Positions 1,480 to 33,192 of a stretch of 33,951 nt of DNA are shown here, in pieces. Positions within the stretch are counted from its first letter, which is position 1; every line of letters begins with the position of its first letter. The notes under the pieces are model-generated. The model made no database searches and had not been told where the DNA came from. It saw nothing but the letters and a program-made list of their open reading frames with translations. The DNA comes from Acidobacteriota bacterium (GTDB lineage Bacteria; Acidobacteriota; Vicinamibacteria; Vicinamibacterales; UBA2999): contig SHUG01000017.1 of NCBI GenBank assembly GCA_009694735.1, positions 1 through 33,951 of the forward strand. The letters are read 5' to 3'. Made by a program: the position numbers and the translations under genes.

Positions 1480-1500
1480 GCGTGAATTCGTTTCCTCTGC

Positions 1501-1530
1501 CGGATCCCGGATCCCGGATCCCGGATCCCG
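1501..1530. repeat. Heptanucleotide tandem repeat, 4 perfect CGGATCC units
   Basis: Four exact copies of the 7-bp unit CGGATCC plus CG start at 1501, 1508, 1515 and 1522. The array ends at the base next to the mtnP stop codon (TAA complement at 1531-1533) and occupies most of the mtnP-kinase gap. Each unit contains the palindrome GGATCC. A related degenerate array lies at 5881-5936. Confidence 0.95.
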
Positions 1531-2406: not shown

Positions 2407-3668
2407 ATCACTCGCTCCACGAATCGCTTCCCGTCTTTCTCACGCAAATAGCCGGCCGCCATGCTGGGCTCGTGTTCAAAGAACAGCAGGTACTCCCGTT
2501 CGACTGCTTCCTTGGCGAACGCACGCTTGAAAGCGAGCGTGTCCATTGGATACAAGTCGTAGCCCATGATCCACGGATCGGGAATGTGCACCGTCGTCGG
2601 GTACATGTCGGCGGTGAAGACGGCGGTCTTCCCGCCCGACTCGATCATCACCACCTGGTGATTCGGCGTGTGCCCCCCCGACCAGCGGAATGTGACGCCC
2701 GGCATGATCTCGGCGCCCTCGTCCACCAGCGCCAGCACACCGGCATCCTTGAGCGGCACGAAGTTCTCCGGCAGGTAGCTGGCGCGATTCCGCTCGTGCG
2801 GATGCGTGGCGTCGTCCCACTCCCCGCGGTGTGCCACGTAGCGCGCCTTGGGGAAACGGGGGACGAGCGAGCCATCCTTGGCGAGGGATGTGAATCCGCC
2901 CACGTGATCGAAGTGCAAATGACTCGCCAGCACGATGTCGATGTCCGCGGGCGTCAGCCCGGCTTCGGCCAACGAGTGATCGAGGTGGTAACTGCGATCG
3001 AGCGCATAAATGGCCGCGCTCTTGGCGTCCATCTTGTCGCCGCATCCGGCATCGATCAGCAGCGTTTTCTCGCCGCGCACAAGCAGCGGCCGCATGCCCA
3101 GCGGAATCCGGTTGGCATCGTCCGGCGGCAACCGCTTCTCCCACAGCGTCCGCGGCACCGTCCCGAACATGGCACCGCCGTCGAGGCGCAGGAAGCCGTC
3201 CGACAGCGTGATCAACTCGAGGTCGCCGAGCGCCTGGCGTCCGACCGTCCGGAACAACGGCACGGCCGGTGCCGGCTGCTTGAGCTCCACGAGCACACCG
3301 TGCGCCGCCGCGGGATGAATAAACGCGACCAGCGCGCCTTCAGCGCCCGGACGAGGGCGCTCGTCGATCAAACGAACGCCGCGCGACTGGAGGTGCGCCA
3401 GCGCCGCGGCAATGTCGTCGACCCGCAAGGCGATGTGGTGGATGCCAGGACCGCGCTTCTCCAGATACTTCGCAATCGGCGAGTCGGCCGCCGTCGCTTC
3501 GAGCAGTTCGAGCGACGACCGACCGGTCGAGAGAAAATGCGCGCGCACCCGCTGCGAGGCAATCTCTTCACTCGCTTCCAGGTGAAGTCCGAGCGTGTCG
3601 CGAAAGAACGCGAGCGACGCCGGCAGGTCGCTGACGGCGATGCCAATGTGATCGAGGACGGCTTTCAT
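2403..3668 (-). CDS. Methylmalonyl-CoA epimerase fused to an MBL-fold hydrolase
   Basis: Residues 1-133 are a vicinal-oxygen-chelate methylmalonyl-CoA epimerase domain: DHIGIAV at the start, H7, E54, H78 (GIHHIALRV) and E128 (VLVELK) sit where the family binds its divalent metal. Residues ~138-421 are a metallo-beta-lactamase fold hydrolase with SHLHFDH at 249-255, SGGHTPNH at 330-337, TADMY at 352-356 and H399. The two activities usually occur as separate proteins of about 135-150 and 280 residues. I see no stop between them; a GTG at residue 136 could be a relic or internal start of the second half. The ATG at 3668 overlaps the meaB stop (TGATG), supporting coupling in a methylmalonyl-CoA operon. 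The open frame continues upstream, but that part is only the antisense-frame reading of meaB. The substrate of the hydrolase half is unknown. Confidence 0.9.
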
Positions 3669-4714
3669 CACAATTTCGATCTGAGGGCCCGCGACAGGAT
3701 ATCCGACGCAGCCGTGTAAGGGTCCACTTCGCGCGCGGCGATGCGGGCGACCAAGGCGTCGAACTCGCCGGCACCCAGCACCTCGTGCTCGACCAGTTCC
3801 ATGAAGCGATGCGTCAGCAGATCCCGCAGCCGAAACTCGTTGCGGGCCTTCAAGCGGCGAGCCCGGTTGGTCCGGCTGAAGCCGGACGCCACATTCGGTG
3901 ACGAGCGGGACGCCACATTCGGTAGCGAGCCGGACGCCGCATTCGATGACGAGCCGGACGCCACATTCTCCGAGTAGGTCCGGAACTGCTGAACCGTGGC
4001 CCACAGCTCGGCCACGCCGTGGCCGGTCGTCGCTTCGGTCTTGAGGATGGGCGGGCGCCACTCGCCTTCCCCGTAGGCCTGCAGCGCCAGGTTCGACTCG
4101 ATCGACGTGACCATGCGGTCGGCGCCATCGCGGTCGCACTTGTTCACGACGAAGATGTCGGCAATCTCCATGATCCCCGCTTTGAGCGCCTGCACATCGT
4201 CTCCCGTGCCGGGTACCAGCACCACGATCGAGACATCGGCGGTGCGGACGATGTCGACTTCGTCCTGGCCAACGCCGACGGTCTCGATGATGACGAGAGA
4301 CTTGCCCGCGGCATCGAGCACGAGGGCCGCATCGCTGGTCGCGCGCGCCAGGCCACCCATGTGTCCGCGCGTCGCCATGCTGCGAATGAAGACCTGTTCG
4401 TCGTGGACGTGGGACAGCATGCGCAGGCGATCACCAAGAATGGCACCACCCGTGAACGGGCTCGTCGGGTCGACGCAGATGACGCCCACCGTCTCGCCGC
4501 TCGCACGCGTGGCCGCGGTCAGTCGTTCGACCAGCGTGCTCTTGCCGGCGCCAGGCGGACCAGTCACGCCGACCAGGTAACTGTGGCCGGTGTGAGGAAA
4601 GATGTCGCGAACCAGGCCGGCCGCGCTGGCGGCTTCGTCCTCGATCAGCGAGATCGCGCGGGCGATGGCCCGTGCGTCGCCGGACCGCACACGCTCGGCA
4701 AGTGTCAGGGGCAT
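3668..4714 (-). CDS. meaB: Methylmalonyl-CoA mutase-associated GTPase MeaB (ArgK family)
   Basis: MeaB is a G-protein chaperone that gates and protects the B12-dependent methylmalonyl-CoA mutase. The 348-residue product has the P-loop GPPGAGKST (52-60), a switch region with EVDIVRTADV, and the guanine-specificity motif NKCD (191-194). The C-terminal helices used for dimerisation follow (RRLKARNEFRLRDLL onward). Between the G domain and these helices, residues ~249-282 are a repetitive, low-complexity stretch (NVASGSSS, NAASGSLP, NVASRSSP, NVASGFSR) encoded by a 24-bp DNA repeat; normal MeaB has no such segment. The start lies 3 bases after the acyl-CoA dehydrogenase stop, and the epimerase fusion follows with a 1-base overlap. 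The mutase itself is not in the window. Confidence 0.95.
   Translation of the reverse strand: MPLTLAERVRSGDARAIARAISLIEDEAASAAGLVRDIFPHTGHSYLVGVTGPPGAGKSTLVERLTAATRASGETVGVICVDPTSPFTGGAILGDRLRMLSHVHDEQVFIRSMATRGHMGGLARATSDAALVLDAAGKSLVIIETVGVGQDEVDIVRTADVSIVVLVPGTGDDVQALKAGIMEIADIFVVNKCDRDGADRMVTSIESNLALQAYGEGEWRPPILKTEATTGHGVAELWATVQQFRTYSENVASGSSSNAASGSLPNVASRSSPNVASGFSRTNRARRLKARNEFRLRDLLTHRFMELVEHEVLGAGEFDALVARIAAREVDPYTAASDILSRALRSKL
3871..3972. repeat. 24-bp tandem repeat plus palindrome inserted in meaB
   Basis: Units beginning GACGCCRCATTC start at 3886, 3910, 3934 and 3958, an exact 24-bp period, about 3.6 copies. The first unit abuts an 18-bp palindrome, GTCCGGCTGAAGCCGGAC, at 3871-3888, with 8-bp arms around a 2-base centre. 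Because 24 is a multiple of 3, the meaB frame is kept and an 8-residue repeat is encoded. On the plus strand the palindrome region reads VRLKPDATFG, a peptide I remember from repeats in acidobacterial genomes. Confidence 0.9.
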
Positions 4715-5873: not shown

Positions 5874-5880
5874 TCTCCCG

Positions 5881-5936
5881 GGGTCCGGGACCCGGGATCC
5901 GGGGTCCGGGATCCGGGATCCGGGATCCCGGATCCC
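5881..5936. repeat. Degenerate heptanucleotide array, 8 units of GGRTCCN type
   Basis: Eight consecutive 7-bp units: GGGTCCG, GGACCCG, GGATCCG, GGGTCCG, GGATCCG, GGATCCG, GGATCCC, GGATCCC. The array lies between the acyl-CoA dehydrogenase start and the end of the lectin-like gene and fills nearly the whole gap. It is the same family as the perfect array at 1501-1530 but has diverged. Confidence 0.93.
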
Positions 5937-6637: not shown

Positions 6638-6663
6638 CCTTCGCCAAGGCTACGGTGGACAGG
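6638..6663 (+). repeat. 26-bp intergenic repeat (LRQGYGGQ-type element)
   Basis: The stretch beginning CCTTCGCCAAGGCTACGG lies between the divergent genes at 6571 and 6719. It matches 19 of 26 positions of the sequence encoding the last residues of DnaJ (11544-11519, minus). Read in one frame it gives LRQGYGGQ, which I remember as a recurrent spurious peptide in acidobacterial genomes. The rest of the 147-base gap shows no strong promoter to my eye. Confidence 0.65.
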
Positions 6664-6718
6664 TCGCAGTGGCGTATCTCTTGCACTGGGACCATGGGAT
6701 CATAGCACCGGAGGCGGC

Positions 6719-11069: not shown

Positions 11070-11516
11070 TTAACTTTGTTCGCGGGATTTTTTCGTGGTG
11101 TCTGCGGTACCGACGGTGGCATCAGGACCAGGGGGCGCCGCACGCCCCAAATCTGTCGGTGACGCTTTTACCAGTGCCGTGCCCAGTCGTTGTTCCCAAT
11201 CGTCGATGCCGCGCGCCAGTTCACGCTTCACGTATTCCATGAACTCATTCACTTCGACCTGCATTTGCTCCATCTTGCGGCGCATGTTCAGGATGATCTC
11301 GACGCCCGCGAGGTTGACTCCCAAATCTCGGGTAAGTGCCAGAATTGTTTCCAGTTGTTCCAGGTCGTCCTCGGAATACAGCCGGGTATTGCCTTCCGTC
11401 CGTGAAGGCTTGAGCAATCCTTCCCGCTCGTAGAGTCGCAAGGTCTGCGGGTGGATGTCGTAACGCTGCGCCACCACGCTGATCATGAAATACGCCTTGC
11501 CTTGTCGCTTGGTCAT
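11070..11516 (-). CDS. hspR: HspR-like MerR-family heat-shock repressor
   Basis: The 148-residue protein has an N-terminal MerR helix-turn-helix and wing: MISVVAQRYDIHPQTLRLYE followed by REGLLKPSRTEGNTRLYSEDDL. The IHPQTLR core is typical of HspR, the repressor of dnaK operons in actinobacteria and some other phyla. A helical segment (residues ~70-115) follows, probably the dimerisation coiled coil, then a disordered charged tail. There is no cysteine effector pattern of metal-sensing MerR proteins. Its ATG overlaps the dnaJ stop (ATGA), so it is co-translated with dnaJ, consistent with autoregulation of dnaK-dnaJ-hspR. A candidate operator lies at 14538-14557. Confidence 0.85.
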   Translation of the reverse strand: MTKRQGKAYFMISVVAQRYDIHPQTLRLYEREGLLKPSRTEGNTRLYSEDDLEQLETILALTRDLGVNLAGVEIILNMRRKMEQMQVEVNEFMEYVKRELARGIDDWEQRLGTALVKASPTDLGRAAPPGPDATVGTADTTKKSREQS

Positions 11517-12624
11517 TGTTTATCCGCCGTAGCTTTAGCGGAGGTGGACTCCCTGACGCTTTCGCCGTTGATGCGACCGAATTCCCTGAGCAATTCTTTT
11601 GAGCGCTCGTCGAGCACCTTGGGCAACCGCATGCGCACTTCGGCCACCAGGTCGCCGCGCCGGCGGTTGCGCCCAGGCGCGCCCCGATCGCGCAACCGGA
11701 AGCGCTGACCCGACTGCGTACCGGGCGGCACGCGCAGCCGGACCGGACCGTCCGGGGTTTCGATGTCGATCTTCGCTCCCAACGCCGCCTCATGGACGGC
11801 GATCGCCACTGTCAGGTGCAGTTCGTCGCCTTCTCGTCGATAGACCGGGTGCTCGAGCACATCGACATCGATCAGCAGGTCGCCGGGAAGACCGCCACGC
11901 ACGCCTGCATGCCCCTTCCCGCCAATGCGCACACGCGCCCCGGCGGCCACGCCGGCGGGAATGCGCACGTTCAGCGTTTCCGCGCGCGGCGCCACGCCCT
12001 GGCCGTGACACGGCGAGCACCCTTCCTGCTTCAGCCGGCCGGCGCCGCCGCAGGTGGGACAGTTCTTGGCAAACACCATGTGGCCGCGGACCGACCGCAC
12101 CGCGCCGGTGCCTTCACAGGCGACGCACCGCGTCTCGGCGACACGCCGGAAGCCACTGCCAGCGCACGACCGGCAGGTGTCTTGCCGCGTGACACTGACA
12201 CCCCGTTGCACGCCGTGCCACGCCTCTTCAAAGGTGAGCGACGCGCGGGCGTGAATGTCGGCGCCGTGGTCGGCGCCATCGGATGGTTCGCGACCCACCC
12301 GCCGCGAAAACACTTCTTCAAACAACTCGCCAAAGGTGGTGGTCCGCTCGGCGTGGACGCGGCTGGAAAAATCGAAACCGGCAAAGCCGAACGAAGCCGC
12401 CTCCTCTTCAGTAATGCCACTCAATTGACCGGCGTCATAGCGGCGCCGGCGGTCGGGATCGATCAACGTCTCGTAGGCATCGAGGACCTGGCGAAACCGT
12501 GTCTCGGCCTCACCATCGCCCGGGTTGATGTCGGGATGCAGCCGACGGGCGAGCCGGCGATAAGCCTTCTTGATATCGCCGGACGGCGCCCCCCGCTCGA
12601 CGCCAAGAACGATGTAGAGGTCCA

Positions 12625-29729: not shown

Positions 29730-30604
29730 CACGCAGGCTCGAGTTCGAAGCTGAGATCGGCGGACGGCGCTGAATGCGTGAGGGCGCCGACCGACACATA
29801 CTGCGCGCCGGTGGTGGCCAGTTCGGGAATGCGGGCGAGCGTCACGCCGCCGGAGATCTCAATCGCGGCCCGGCCCGCCACGCGCGCGACCGCCTCGCGC
29901 ACGTCGTAGGTCGTGAAGTTGTCGAGCAGGATGCGCGGGACGCCTGCCTTCAGCACCTCGTCCAGTTCCGCCAGGGTTTCCACCTCGACCTCCACTGGCA
30001 GGCCGCTCGACTGTTCCATGGCCCGCACGGCCGCCGCTCGGACGCCACCGGCGAGACGCTTGTGGTTGTCCTTGATCAGGATGCCGTCATCCAGCCGCTG
30101 CCGATGATTGGTGCCGCCACCGCAGCGCACCGCGTACTTCTCGAGCACCCGGAAGCCGGGCGTGGTCTTGCGAGTGTCGAGAATCGTGATGCCCCCCGCC
30201 GCCGCCGCGACGAACTTGGCCGTGAGCGTCGCGATGCCGCACAGGCGTTGCAAGAAGTTCAGCGCCGTGCGTTCGGCCTCGAGCAGGGCACGGGCGTCGC
30301 CCGTGACCGACGCCACGGTCTCACCCGCTTGCACGTGAGCGCCATCGGACCAGTGCACTTCGACGACGACCGACGGATCCGCCTGCCGAAATGTCTCGGC
30401 GGCCACCGCGAGGCCGGCGATCACGATGTCGGCGTTGGCGAGGATCACGCCGCGTGCGCGCTGCCCAACGGTGATGGTGGCGGCGCTGGTGACGTCGCCC
30501 TGCCCGCGGTCTTCGGCGAGCGCGCTGCGGACGAGATCACGATAGGCATCGAGCGGTAGCGGTGCCGCCTGCCCGCCGCCCCTCTGGCGCAGGTGAGCCA
30601 TCAT
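29729..30604 (-). CDS. nadC: Nicotinate-nucleotide pyrophosphorylase (carboxylating)
   Basis: The 291-residue quinolinate phosphoribosyltransferase makes nicotinate mononucleotide in de novo NAD synthesis. Signatures are EDRGQGDVTS near residue 30, TRKTTPGFRVLEKYAVRCGG with the substrate-binding Arg and Lys, NHRQRLDDGILIKDNH, and VEVETLAELDEVL. The final ISGGVTLARIPELATTGAQY is the phosphate-binding strand-loop. The start ATG at 30604 overlaps the valS stop (ATGA); a second ATG follows directly. It sits between valS and birA, so three cofactor genes (NAD, biotin, CoA) are co-transcribed with a tRNA synthetase. Confidence 0.95.
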   Translation of the reverse strand: MMAHLRQRGGGQAAPLPLDAYRDLVRSALAEDRGQGDVTSAATITVGQRARGVILANADIVIAGLAVAAETFRQADPSVVVEVHWSDGAHVQAGETVASVTGDARALLEAERTALNFLQRLCGIATLTAKFVAAAAGGITILDTRKTTPGFRVLEKYAVRCGGGTNHRQRLDDGILIKDNHKRLAGGVRAAAVRAMEQSSGLPVEVEVETLAELDEVLKAGVPRILLDNFTTYDVREAVARVAGRAAIEISGGVTLARIPELATTGAQYVSVGALTHSAPSADLSFELEPA

Positions 30605-33192
30605 GCCTCAGCCGGCTTCAGGGTGATTTCGACCCGCGGCTCGCCGGTCTTGAGCACGAGTCCGTCGGCACGGCACGCCGCCTTCAGATCGCGCTCGACC
30701 AGTGCCAGGCTTCTGGCCGCCTCGTCGCCGGCAAAGTAGATCACTTCCCGCACCGGCGTACCGACCGACACTTTCCGGTCGGTCTTGGCCTTGCGAATGG
30801 CATTGAGCGCCTCGGTCAAGTGGAACACCGACCGCTGCGCGGCGTCGTCCGTACCAGACACCGCGATCAGATCCTCGCGGGTCGGCCACTGGGCGCGGTG
30901 CACGGATCCAGCGTTCGACCACGACCACACCTCTTCGCAGACGAACGACAGGTACGGCGCCAGCAACCGCAGCAGCACCGATAGCGCCAGCCGCATGGCG
31001 GTGGATGCGGAGGCCGCGGCGTCAACGCCGAAGTCGCCGTAGCGCCGCGATTTCGCGGCCTCGACGTAGTTATCGCAGAAGTCCCAGAAGAACGACTCGA
31101 TCTTCGCGAGGGCCCTGGCATACTCGTAGTCCGAGAGTTCCTCCGTCGCCTCGTCCACGAGATTGGCGAGGTTCTGCAGCATGCCGCGGTCCAGCGCTTC
31201 GGTGACCGTGCCGACCGGCTGCTCGCCGGCCAGCACGAACTTCGAGACGTTCAGCACTTTCATGGCGAGCTTGCGGCCAATCTTCATCTGACCGACATCG
31301 AAGGCCGTGTCCACGCCGGGACCGCCGCGCGCCGCCCAATAGCGAACGCCGTCTGAGCCGTACTCTTGCAGCAGTCCGAGTGGCGTGACGACGTTGCCCT
31401 TGGACTTCGACATCTTCTTGCGATCGGGATCGAGCACCCAGCCGGAGATGGCGGCGTGGGTCCACGGCACGGAGTCGTTCTCGAAGTGCGCGCGCACCAC
31501 TGACGAAAACAGCCAGGTGCGGATGATGTCGTGCGCCTGTGGCCGCAGGTCCATCGGGAACGTTCGCGCGAAAATGTCGGCGTCGGTCTGCCACTGGCTG
31601 ACCAGCTGGGGAGACACCGACGAGGTCGCCCAGGTGTCCATCACGTCCGGGTCGGCAATGAAGCCGCCCGGCTGGCCGCGCTGGTCGGCGGTATAGCCGT
31701 CTGGCACGTCGGTCGACGGATCGATGGGCAGGCGCGACTCCGCCGGCACCAGTGGCTGGTGGTAGTCGGTGGTGCCGTCAGCAAGCAGCGGATACCACAC
31801 GGGGAACGGCACGCCAAAGAAGCGCTGACGGCTGACGCACCAATCGCCGTTGAGGCCGTTGACCCAGTTCTCGTAGCGCGCCTGCATGTACGCCGGGTGC
31901 CACGCGATCTCGCGGCCGCGCGCGATCAACTGATCGCGATAGTCGATGGTCTTGAAGAACCACTGGCGGCTGGTCACGATCTCGAGCGGCCGGTCGCCCT
32001 TCTCGTAAAACTTGACGTTGTGCGTGATCGGCTTCGGCTCGCCCTGCAGGTCGCCGCTCTCACGCAGTAACTCGACGACCTTGACCTGGGCCTTCTTCGC
32101 CGACAGGCCAACCAACTGGTCGTAGGCCTGTTGCGCGCGCGCCACATCGGCGCATTCCCAGCCCCGATCGCCCCAGGTGACGCGGCCGAGGGTGCCGTCG
32201 GGCTGCACGATGGCGCGCACCGGCAACTTCAACTCGCGCCACCAGGTGACGTCGGTGGTGTCGCCGAACGTGCAGATCATCGCGATGCCGCTGCCCTTTT
32301 CGGGATCGGCCAGGGCATGCGCGAGCACCGGCACCCGCACGCCGAAGATCGGCGTGATCACCTCAGTGCCAAACAGCGACTGGTAGCGCGCGTCATCCGG
32401 ATGCGCCACCAGCGCCACGCACGCGGGAATCAACTCCGGGCGCGTCGTCTCGATGGCAACCACGCCGCTGCCGCCTGCCTGGGAAAAATGAATCCGGTGA
32501 TAGGCACCGGGCTGCTCGCGATCCTCGAGTTCGGCCTGCGCCACCGCGGTGCGGAAGTCCACGTCCCACAGCGTCGGTGCTTCGACCTGGTACGCCAGCT
32601 TCTTCTGCAGCAGGCGCAGGAACATCATCTGCGACACGCGCTGCGCCGGCGGCGCGATGGTCGCGTAGGTCATCGACCAATCCACCGACAGGCCGAGATA
32701 ACGCCACAGGTGCTCGAACAGCTGTTCGTCCTCGACGGTCAGCTTGACGCACAACTCGATGAAGTTGGGGCGCGACACCGAGATGGGCTGCTTTTCGCCC
32801 CTCGACTTCGCTCGGGGCGACCCGGAGCCCGTCGAAGGGTCGGCTTCGTCCGGCAGCCTGAAGTTCGGGTCGTAGGGCAGCGACGGATCGCACCGGACGC
32901 CGAAATAGTTCTGCACGCGGCGCTCAGTGGGCAGCCCGTTGTCATCCCACCCCATCGGGTAGAACACTTCCTTGCCGCGCATGCGCTGGAAGCGCGCGAC
33001 GATGTCGGTGTGAGTGTAGGAGAAGACGTGCCCGACGTGCAGTGACCCGCTGACCGTGGGCGGCGGCGTGTCGATCGCGTAGACCTGATCGCGAGGCTTT
33101 GAGCGATCGAACCGGTAGGTGCCGTCACGCTCCCACCGAGCCGACAACGCGTCTTCGAGGCCTTCCAGCGCGGGCTTTTCCGGAACGGGCAT
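30601..33192 (-). CDS. valS: Valyl-tRNA synthetase
   Basis: The 863-residue class I synthetase has the HIGH-type motif HVGH (52-55; PPPTVSGSLHVGH) and KMSKS at 593-597. WDDNGLPTERRVQN near residue 82 marks the archaeal/actinobacterial-like ValRS subtype. The CP1 editing domain spans about residues 200-400. The C-terminus lacks the long coiled-coil found in E. coli ValRS. Residues ~119-134 (PSTGSGSPRAKSRGEK) are an in-frame insert just before the conserved ISVSRPNFIEL, encoded by a palindromic repeat. GGAGAG lies 2 bases before the ATG. It heads the valS-nadC-birA-coaX run. Confidence 0.96.
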   Translation of the reverse strand: MPVPEKPALEGLEDALSARWERDGTYRFDRSKPRDQVYAIDTPPPTVSGSLHVGHVFSYTHTDIVARFQRMRGKEVFYPMGWDDNGLPTERRVQNYFGVRCDPSLPYDPNFRLPDEADPSTGSGSPRAKSRGEKQPISVSRPNFIELCVKLTVEDEQLFEHLWRYLGLSVDWSMTYATIAPPAQRVSQMMFLRLLQKKLAYQVEAPTLWDVDFRTAVAQAELEDREQPGAYHRIHFSQAGGSGVVAIETTRPELIPACVALVAHPDDARYQSLFGTEVITPIFGVRVPVLAHALADPEKGSGIAMICTFGDTTDVTWWRELKLPVRAIVQPDGTLGRVTWGDRGWECADVARAQQAYDQLVGLSAKKAQVKVVELLRESGDLQGEPKPITHNVKFYEKGDRPLEIVTSRQWFFKTIDYRDQLIARGREIAWHPAYMQARYENWVNGLNGDWCVSRQRFFGVPFPVWYPLLADGTTDYHQPLVPAESRLPIDPSTDVPDGYTADQRGQPGGFIADPDVMDTWATSSVSPQLVSQWQTDADIFARTFPMDLRPQAHDIIRTWLFSSVVRAHFENDSVPWTHAAISGWVLDPDRKKMSKSKGNVVTPLGLLQEYGSDGVRYWAARGGPGVDTAFDVGQMKIGRKLAMKVLNVSKFVLAGEQPVGTVTEALDRGMLQNLANLVDEATEELSDYEYARALAKIESFFWDFCDNYVEAAKSRRYGDFGVDAAASASTAMRLALSVLLRLLAPYLSFVCEEVWSWSNAGSVHRAQWPTREDLIAVSGTDDAAQRSVFHLTEALNAIRKAKTDRKVSVGTPVREVIYFAGDEAARSLALVERDLKAACRADGLVLKTGEPRVEITLKPAEA
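32796..32839. repeat. Palindromic repeat element inserted in frame in valS
   Basis: The plus strand reads CGCCCC(TC...)GGGGCG at 32796-32819, a 6-base-armed hairpin, followed by CCCGTCGAAGGG at 32828-32839. The element encodes STGSGSPRAKSRG in ValRS. In another minus-strand frame it reads FDGLRVAPSEVEG, which I remember as a recurrent peptide from repeats in acidobacterial and other GC-rich genomes. Confidence 0.65.

What the first reader, a model, noticed from the sequence alone, without database searches (positions are those of the whole stretch)
3871..3972. 24-bp tandem repeat with palindrome inserted in frame in meaB
An exact 24-bp period plus an 18-bp palindrome adds about 34 residues in the linker between the GTPase domain and the dimerisation helices. 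It keeps the frame, as Rickettsia palindromic elements do. I recall the VRLKPD reading of the palindrome from repeats in related genomes, so this is likely a mobile family caught inside an essential-type metabolic gene.
Basis: partly seen in the sequence, partly recalled or inferred. Interest (0 to 1): 0.7.

Follow-up and report, generated by a model that had tools for sequence, protein, structure and literature searches.

The report
Mobile palindrome built into meaB linker
A 24-base selfish DNA palindrome, present in about a hundred copies in this bacterium, landed in frame in the gene for the enzyme helper MeaB, and half-copies of it then piled up beside it and lengthened a floppy part of the protein; it is a clear case of a known phenomenon with some new regularities.

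Summary
On the coding strand, window 3869-3964 is one full 24-nt REP palindrome (GTGG-C-GTCCGGCT-TC-AGCCGGAC-C) preceded by three 24-nt left-half copies, adding 32 residues (251-282) to MeaB's linker.

It is a GTAG-class REP rather than a long Rickettsia RPE. The own genome holds 103 copies at up to 2 mismatches, and one RAYT gene (NF047646, above cut-off) lies between inverted copies of it.

Of nine same-genus genomes, four have an empty site with a 24-residue linker (G002, G004, G007, G008). Five are filled: +8, +8, +16, +23, +32 residues. For G000 against the filled G003, G005 and G006, dN/dS is 0.036-0.069 on both sides of the insert. The insert is modelled with pLDDT under 50.

Two regularities go further. 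In-gene simple REPs read almost only as VASGFSRT or VRLKPDAT (23 of 24 copies, 17 of 18 loci). Left-half copies recur on the GTGG side of full REPs at several loci, although the 24-bp array is unique to meaB here.

Intragenic REPs are already published (PMC3733652).

The parts
3668..4714 (-). meaB, methylmalonyl-CoA mutase-associated GTPase, 348 aa
   Evidence: TIGR00750 320.1 bits, PF03308 289.4 bits; model matches MeaB and MMAA structures 8dpb, 4jyb, 2qm8, 8gju
3869..3892 (-). full 24-nt REP: GTGG tag, 8-bp stem, 2-nt loop; encodes VASGFSRT
   Evidence: sequence, exact palindrome, 103 copies at up to 2 mismatches in own genome
3893..3916 (-). half-REP unit 3 (GTGG tag and left arm, right arm not recognisable); encodes VASRSSPN
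3917..3940 (-). half-REP unit 2; encodes AASGSLPN
3941..3964 (-). half-REP unit 1; encodes VASGSSSN
3869..3964 (-). whole insert relative to empty orthologues, 96 nt, residues 251-282, modelled as disordered
   Evidence: alignment of orthologues; pLDDT under 50 at residues 255-282 between helices 234-254 and 283-312

Best explanation
A REP (GTRGCGTCCGGCTNNAGCCGGACC, 24 nt), a non-autonomous element served by a RAYT (HUH/Y1 tyrosine) transposase, entered the linker codons of meaB in an ancestor of part of this genus. Because 24 nt is eight codons and two frames per strand are free of stops whatever the loop bases, the gene stayed open and gained a hydrophilic VASGFSRT segment in a site that tolerates length. 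Later the GTGG-tagged left half was duplicated next to it, most simply by replication slippage at the hairpin, giving +16, +23 and finally +32 residues. Shown: dispersed family, REP anatomy, RAYT between inverted REPs, empty and filled sites, stepwise lengths, purifying selection on both sides in the pairs that could be compared. Inferred: mobilisation by this RAYT, slippage as the way of growth, neutrality for MeaB.
For: 103 copies at up to 2 mismatches in the own genome and 0 for the reversed control; 73, 90, 15 and 13 exact-degenerate copies in G000, G005, G003, G006 and 0 to 1 in each of the five other same-genus genomes. RAYT P0001 lies between inverted REPs, NF047646 83.8 bits against cut-off 80, weak match to TnpArep 4er8, E 1.6e-8. 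Of 12 Y1-transposase loci looked at, the 6 nearest to P0001 (own and 44-76% identical) carry GTCCGGCTNNAGCCGGAC beside the gene; L133, L135, L217, L218, L033, L034 do not. Linker lengths 24 (empty), 32, 32, 40, 47, 56. dN/dS for G000 against G005, G003, G006: 0.069, 0.050, 0.036 (G domain) and 0.069, 0.045, 0.066 (C-terminal part). Insert disordered in the model. Single REP folds as DNA hairpin, -7.8 kcal/mol, z -2.93. Filler between half and full copy equals the sequence upstream of the half in L169 (6/6), L235 (6/6) and the window (10/12).
Against: No insertion was observed in action. G005 has 90 copies but its best RAYT match is only 38% identical, and G003 has none at E 0.001. In L120 and L127 the simple REP was seen on one side of the RAYT only, and in L127 without a recognised tag. 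The insert is not on one branch of the meaB tree: at least 3 changes, 0% of bootstrap trees with one, G008 empty but sister to G005 (91/92); so either two or more gains or precise loss. In the M28 gene the net gain is 4 residues, not 8. In 11 of 14 half-REP places the filler matches its upstream flank only partly, which simple slippage does not predict unless they are old. The meaB array as a whole does not fold better than shuffles (z -1.28 and -0.36).
Confidence: 0.85

Rival explanations
1. A Rickettsia-type palindromic element (RPE) family.
For: In-frame presence in conserved genes and palindromic form are shared; RPE-4 and RPE-6 are classed as CGTC REPs in PMC3733652 (section 15).
Against: 24 nt against 105-146 bp (PMC2229807 passages); a GTGG/GTAG tag and a RAYT beside it, whereas PMC3733652 says CGTC repeats are not associated with transposase genes (passage).
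Confidence: 0.04
2. An ordinary coding tandem repeat: local 24-bp slippage in a low-constraint linker, with a chance palindrome.
For: The 24-bp array occurs nowhere else in the genome, and copies differ between species.
Against: Unit and palindrome match a family of about 100 dispersed copies; single-unit filled sites exist in G006 and G001.
Confidence: 0.03
3. The half units are separate RAYT products, for example abortive or one-sided insertions of the GTGG-side half next to a resident REP, rather than slippage duplicates.
For: Half copies lie on the GTGG side and occur at several loci with spacings 17, 18, 21, 24 and differing fillers; the GTAG tag is the recognition and cleavage guide in studied TnpAREP (PMC8266576 passages).
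Against: Fillers equal upstream flanks in the three freshest-looking cases; no such product is known to me.
Confidence: 0.25
4. The lengthened linker is adaptive, changing how far the MeaB G domain can swing against its dimer arms.
For: The insert sits exactly between the G domain and the C-terminal helices; the species differ in length stepwise.
Against: Same-genus species with no insert exist; MFS, PurL, M28 and others carry REPs too, as expected for tolerated insertion.
Confidence: 0.06

Closest known systems
GTAG-class REPs and REPtrons with RAYT (TnpAREP)
   Same: short palindrome with a 5' GTRG tag, high copy number, REPINs (inverted pairs), RAYT gene between inverted copies
   Different: 24 nt long, GTGG as well as GTAG tag, compound forms with an extra insert in the loop; the host lineage is inferred from neighbours to be Acidobacteriota (titles)
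Intragenic REPs, 'REP-decorated proteins' (PMC3733652, section 15 and passages)
   Same: REPs inside conserved genes, in frame, suggested there to sit in flexible linkers or loops
   Different: here with empty and filled sites within one genus, a growing half-REP array and a near-fixed reading frame; I saw no such array or frame count in the parts of that paper that I read
Rickettsia palindromic elements (RPE)
   Same: palindromic, in frame in conserved proteins
   Different: much longer, other lineage, no RAYT link in the passages seen

Membership tests
GTAG-class REP | 20-40 bp palindrome in high copy number | tested here: met
   103 copies at up to 2 mismatches, reversed control 0
GTAG-class REP | GTAG-like tetranucleotide 5' of the palindrome | tested here: met
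   GTGG or GTAG followed by CGTCCGGCT: 105 sites in the genome; in 73 of 93 fetched sites a right arm follows within 10 nt
GTAG-class REP | mostly extragenic | tested here: inconclusive
   12 of 70 tested G000 copies and 12 of 47 G005 copies sit in open coding frames by a codon score, a lower bound since meaB, L171 and L175 were missed by it
REPtron | RAYT gene flanked by its own REP in inverted orientation | tested here: met
   C66 in the own genome; NF047646 above cut-off
REPtron | RAYT binds and cuts this REP | not testable with these tools
   needs biochemistry
Rickettsia RPE | 105-146 bp element | tested here: not met
   24 nt net insert in meaB of G006 and G001
MITE | target-site duplication at empty/filled sites | tested here: inconclusive
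   meaB filled sites in G001 and G006 show a net gain of 24 nt with no evident duplication, but the sites have diverged

The most novel reading that the evidence does not exclude
A REP family under selection on its peptide: the element keeps a length of eight codons and two mild peptides (VASGFSRT one way, VRLKPDAT the other), and a polarised half-REP duplication process extends disordered linkers in steps of six to eight residues, so that a mobile element acts as a standing source of linker length variation in many proteins of this genus.
Probability: 0.3. Interest if true: 0.7.

Novelty: new variant of a known kind. Interest (0 to 1): 0.45.

Why it matters
It gives, within one genus, empty sites, single insertions and growing arrays in the same gene, so the fate of a transposable palindrome inside a conserved protein can be followed step by step. 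The frame bias says that what survives in genes depends on the peptide encoded or on where the element can land. It also warns that annotated 'indels' and recurrent VRLKPD/SGFSRT-like stretches in proteins from such genomes may be translated mobile DNA.

Tried and rejected
Rejected: RPE membership (size, RAYT); chance palindrome; a mobile 24-bp unit. Weakened: one single origin of the meaB insert. Against a strict frame rule: compound REPs in L170 and L193 read in a third way (PADHLRQGYGGQEAGRH-like), and L272 reads WRPASAGP; three further copies had coding scores on both sides but no open frame across. Some 5' hits are not half-REPs but full or compound copies (L161, L165, L259, L279) or doubtful (L157, L198, L272), and the four 3' hits are full tandem copies (three, in L259 and L279) or a chance match (L160). 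Not every in-gene copy lies in a linker: those in L151, L171 and L193 fall inside Pfam domain matches, while those in L169, L170 and L205 lie between domains. Literature: no paper held the strings VRLKPD, SGFSRT, VRLQPD or LRQGYGGQ; searches for Acidobacteria with REP and RAYT and for intragenic REP with tandem duplication gave PMC3733652 as the nearest. Papers: PMC3733652 section 15 in full and passages; PMC8266576, PMC2229807 and PMC6006769 passages only; the rest only as search listings. Not used: one genome search, one structure job.

Full report
Setting. The window is contig C121 of a 3.25-Mb, 182-contig genome of 85.74% completeness. The gene is meaB, 3668-4714 on the minus strand.

The thing itself. 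Read on the coding strand, the insert is three 24-nt units GTGGCGTCCGGCTCGTCATCGAAT, GCGGCGTCCGGCTCGCTACCGAAT and GTGGCGTCCCGCTCGTCACCGAAT, followed by GTGGCGTCCGGCTTCAGCCGGACC. The last is a tag plus a perfect 8-bp stem with a 2-nt loop. The three others keep tag and left arm and lack a recognisable right arm. The whole reads VASGSSSN-AASGSLPN-VASRSSPN-VASGFSRT.

A dispersed family. The pattern GTCCGGCTGAAGCCGGACGCCACA has 103 matches at up to 2 mismatches in the own genome and none for the reversed control. The degenerate exact form has 73 copies in G000, 90 in G005, 15 in G003, 13 in G006, one each in G001, G002 and G008, none in G004 and G007; 10 of 60 relatives searched have any. Of 93 tagged left arms in 78 fetched stretches, 73 are followed by the right arm within 10 nt; many of the other 20 carry an extra insert in the loop.

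The transposase. PF01797 finds three Y1 transposases in the own genome. One, at C66, is a 173-aa open frame with REPs inverted on its two sides; it passes the NCBIfam model for REP-associated tyrosine transposases (83.8 against 80 bits). Homologues were sought in 60 relatives and found in 39. I looked at the flanks of 12 Y1 loci (8 of the 20 loci, two further G005 stretches and the two other own-genome ones): the six nearest relatives carry GTCCGGCTNNAGCCGGAC, six others do not. In L120 and L127 this was one-sided. G005, the richest genome, has no close RAYT (best 38%), and G003 none, so ongoing mobility there is not shown.

Empty and filled sites. In 29 orthologues and 74 (103 rows, some genomes twice), a motif-to-motif distance could be measured in 85: 78 lie at 59-67 residues, seven at 73-97, and the window is the longest at 97. 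In the direct linker measure, empty orthologues have 24 residues, G006 and G001 32, G003 40, G005 47, the window 56. One distant row, L031 (G021), has a 36-residue linker whose sequence does not look like a REP; I did not follow it. The meaB tree needs at least three changes and puts empty G008 beside filled G005, and filled G001 beside empty G002: repeated gain or precise loss cannot be told apart.

The protein is kept. For G000 against G005, G003 and G006, dN/dS is 0.036-0.069 in the G domain and 0.045-0.069 in the C-terminal part; over all computed pairs it goes up to 0.141, and eight pairs, each of G008 or G001 with one of the other four, could not be computed for the C-terminal part because of a length difference. 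The AlphaFold model (32 sequences, mean pLDDT 82.0) has helix 234-254, residues 255-282 under 50, then helix 283-312; nearly all aligned sequences lack the insert, which itself lowers confidence there. Foldseek puts MeaB and MMAA structures first.

Other genes. In a looser codon-score test, 13 further G000 loci besides meaB have a REP or compound REP inside an open coding frame. Eleven of these 13 proteins have a Pfam match at 1e-6 (PLP enzyme, M28 peptidase, beta-lactamase/NamZ, molybdopterin dehydrogenase FAD subunit, PurL, uracil-DNA glycosylase, MFS, S9 peptidase, FAD oxidase, ABC transporter, BNR protein); L141 and L143 have none. In three genes compared with eight same-genus genomes, PurL carries a REP pair in G000, G003, G005 and G008 and is without it in the others; the M28 peptidase has it only in G000, with a net gain of 4 residues; the MFS loop is filled by different repeats in different species.

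Frame. In a stricter test on full simple REPs, 74 copies were found in the G000 stretches and 49 in those of G005, 70 and 47 could be tested, and 24 lay in frames open across with coding scores on both sides: 15 forward VASGFSRT, 8 reverse VRLKPDAT, 1 forward WRPASAGP. Per locus 17 of 18. Two frames per strand are stop-free whatever the loop, so even odds would give 17 or more of 18 with probability about 7e-5 (my arithmetic; loci shared by descent between the two genomes were not removed). The meaB copy itself, L171 and L175 did not pass this stricter test. Compound REPs do not follow the rule (L170, L193).

Half-REPs. Extra left halves just 5' of a full REP were listed for 8 of 74 G000 and 11 of 49 G005 full copies by pattern, extra right halves 3' for 1 and 3. 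By eye, about four of the G000 and eight of the G005 cases are real half copies (L147, L150, L169, window; L243, L250, L253, L254, two in L263, L265, L004); none of the 3' ones is. L189, L205 and G008's purL (L235) add cases. Spacings are 17, 18, 21 and 24. So the window's array is the longest example seen of a recurrent polarised structure, though its 24-bp form is unique in the genome. Where the copies look fresh (L169, L235, window) the filler repeats the upstream flank, as slippage would give; elsewhere it matches only partly.

Verdict. A GTAG-class REP caught in frame in meaB and enlarged by half copies. The phenomenon of REPs inside genes is in print (PMC3733652, section 15 and passages); what is added here is the within-genus series of empty, single and multiple states, the frame bias and the half-REP arrays, none of which I saw in the parts of the papers read.

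Noticed in passing
window 32802-32837 (- strand), in valS 30601-33192: An imperfect palindrome reading DPSTGSGSPRAKSRGEKQP lies in frame in the valyl-tRNA synthetase frame; 5 copies of the pattern at up to 3 mismatches in the own genome: a second repeat family inside a conserved gene. Orthologues were not compared.
   Followed up: partly
window 6639-6666 and 11513-11550: LRQGYGGQ-like and STSAKATADKQ-like stretches, resembling the insert in the loop of compound REPs.
   Followed up: no
window 1500-1530 and 5878-5935: 7-bp tandem arrays CCGGATC (4.4 copies) and CCGGGAT (8.3 copies); the MFS loop of G003 reads like a translated array of this kind.
   Followed up: no
L235 (G008 purL): Two 18-bp half-REPs in tandem before a full REP, reading SDVASGSDVASGSDVASGFSRT.
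   Followed up: yes
L035:1336-1395: Beside the RAYT, a REP whose loop holds a further insert, a nested insertion.
   Followed up: partly
L031 (G021 meaB): A 12-residue longer linker of other sequence at the same place.
   Followed up: no
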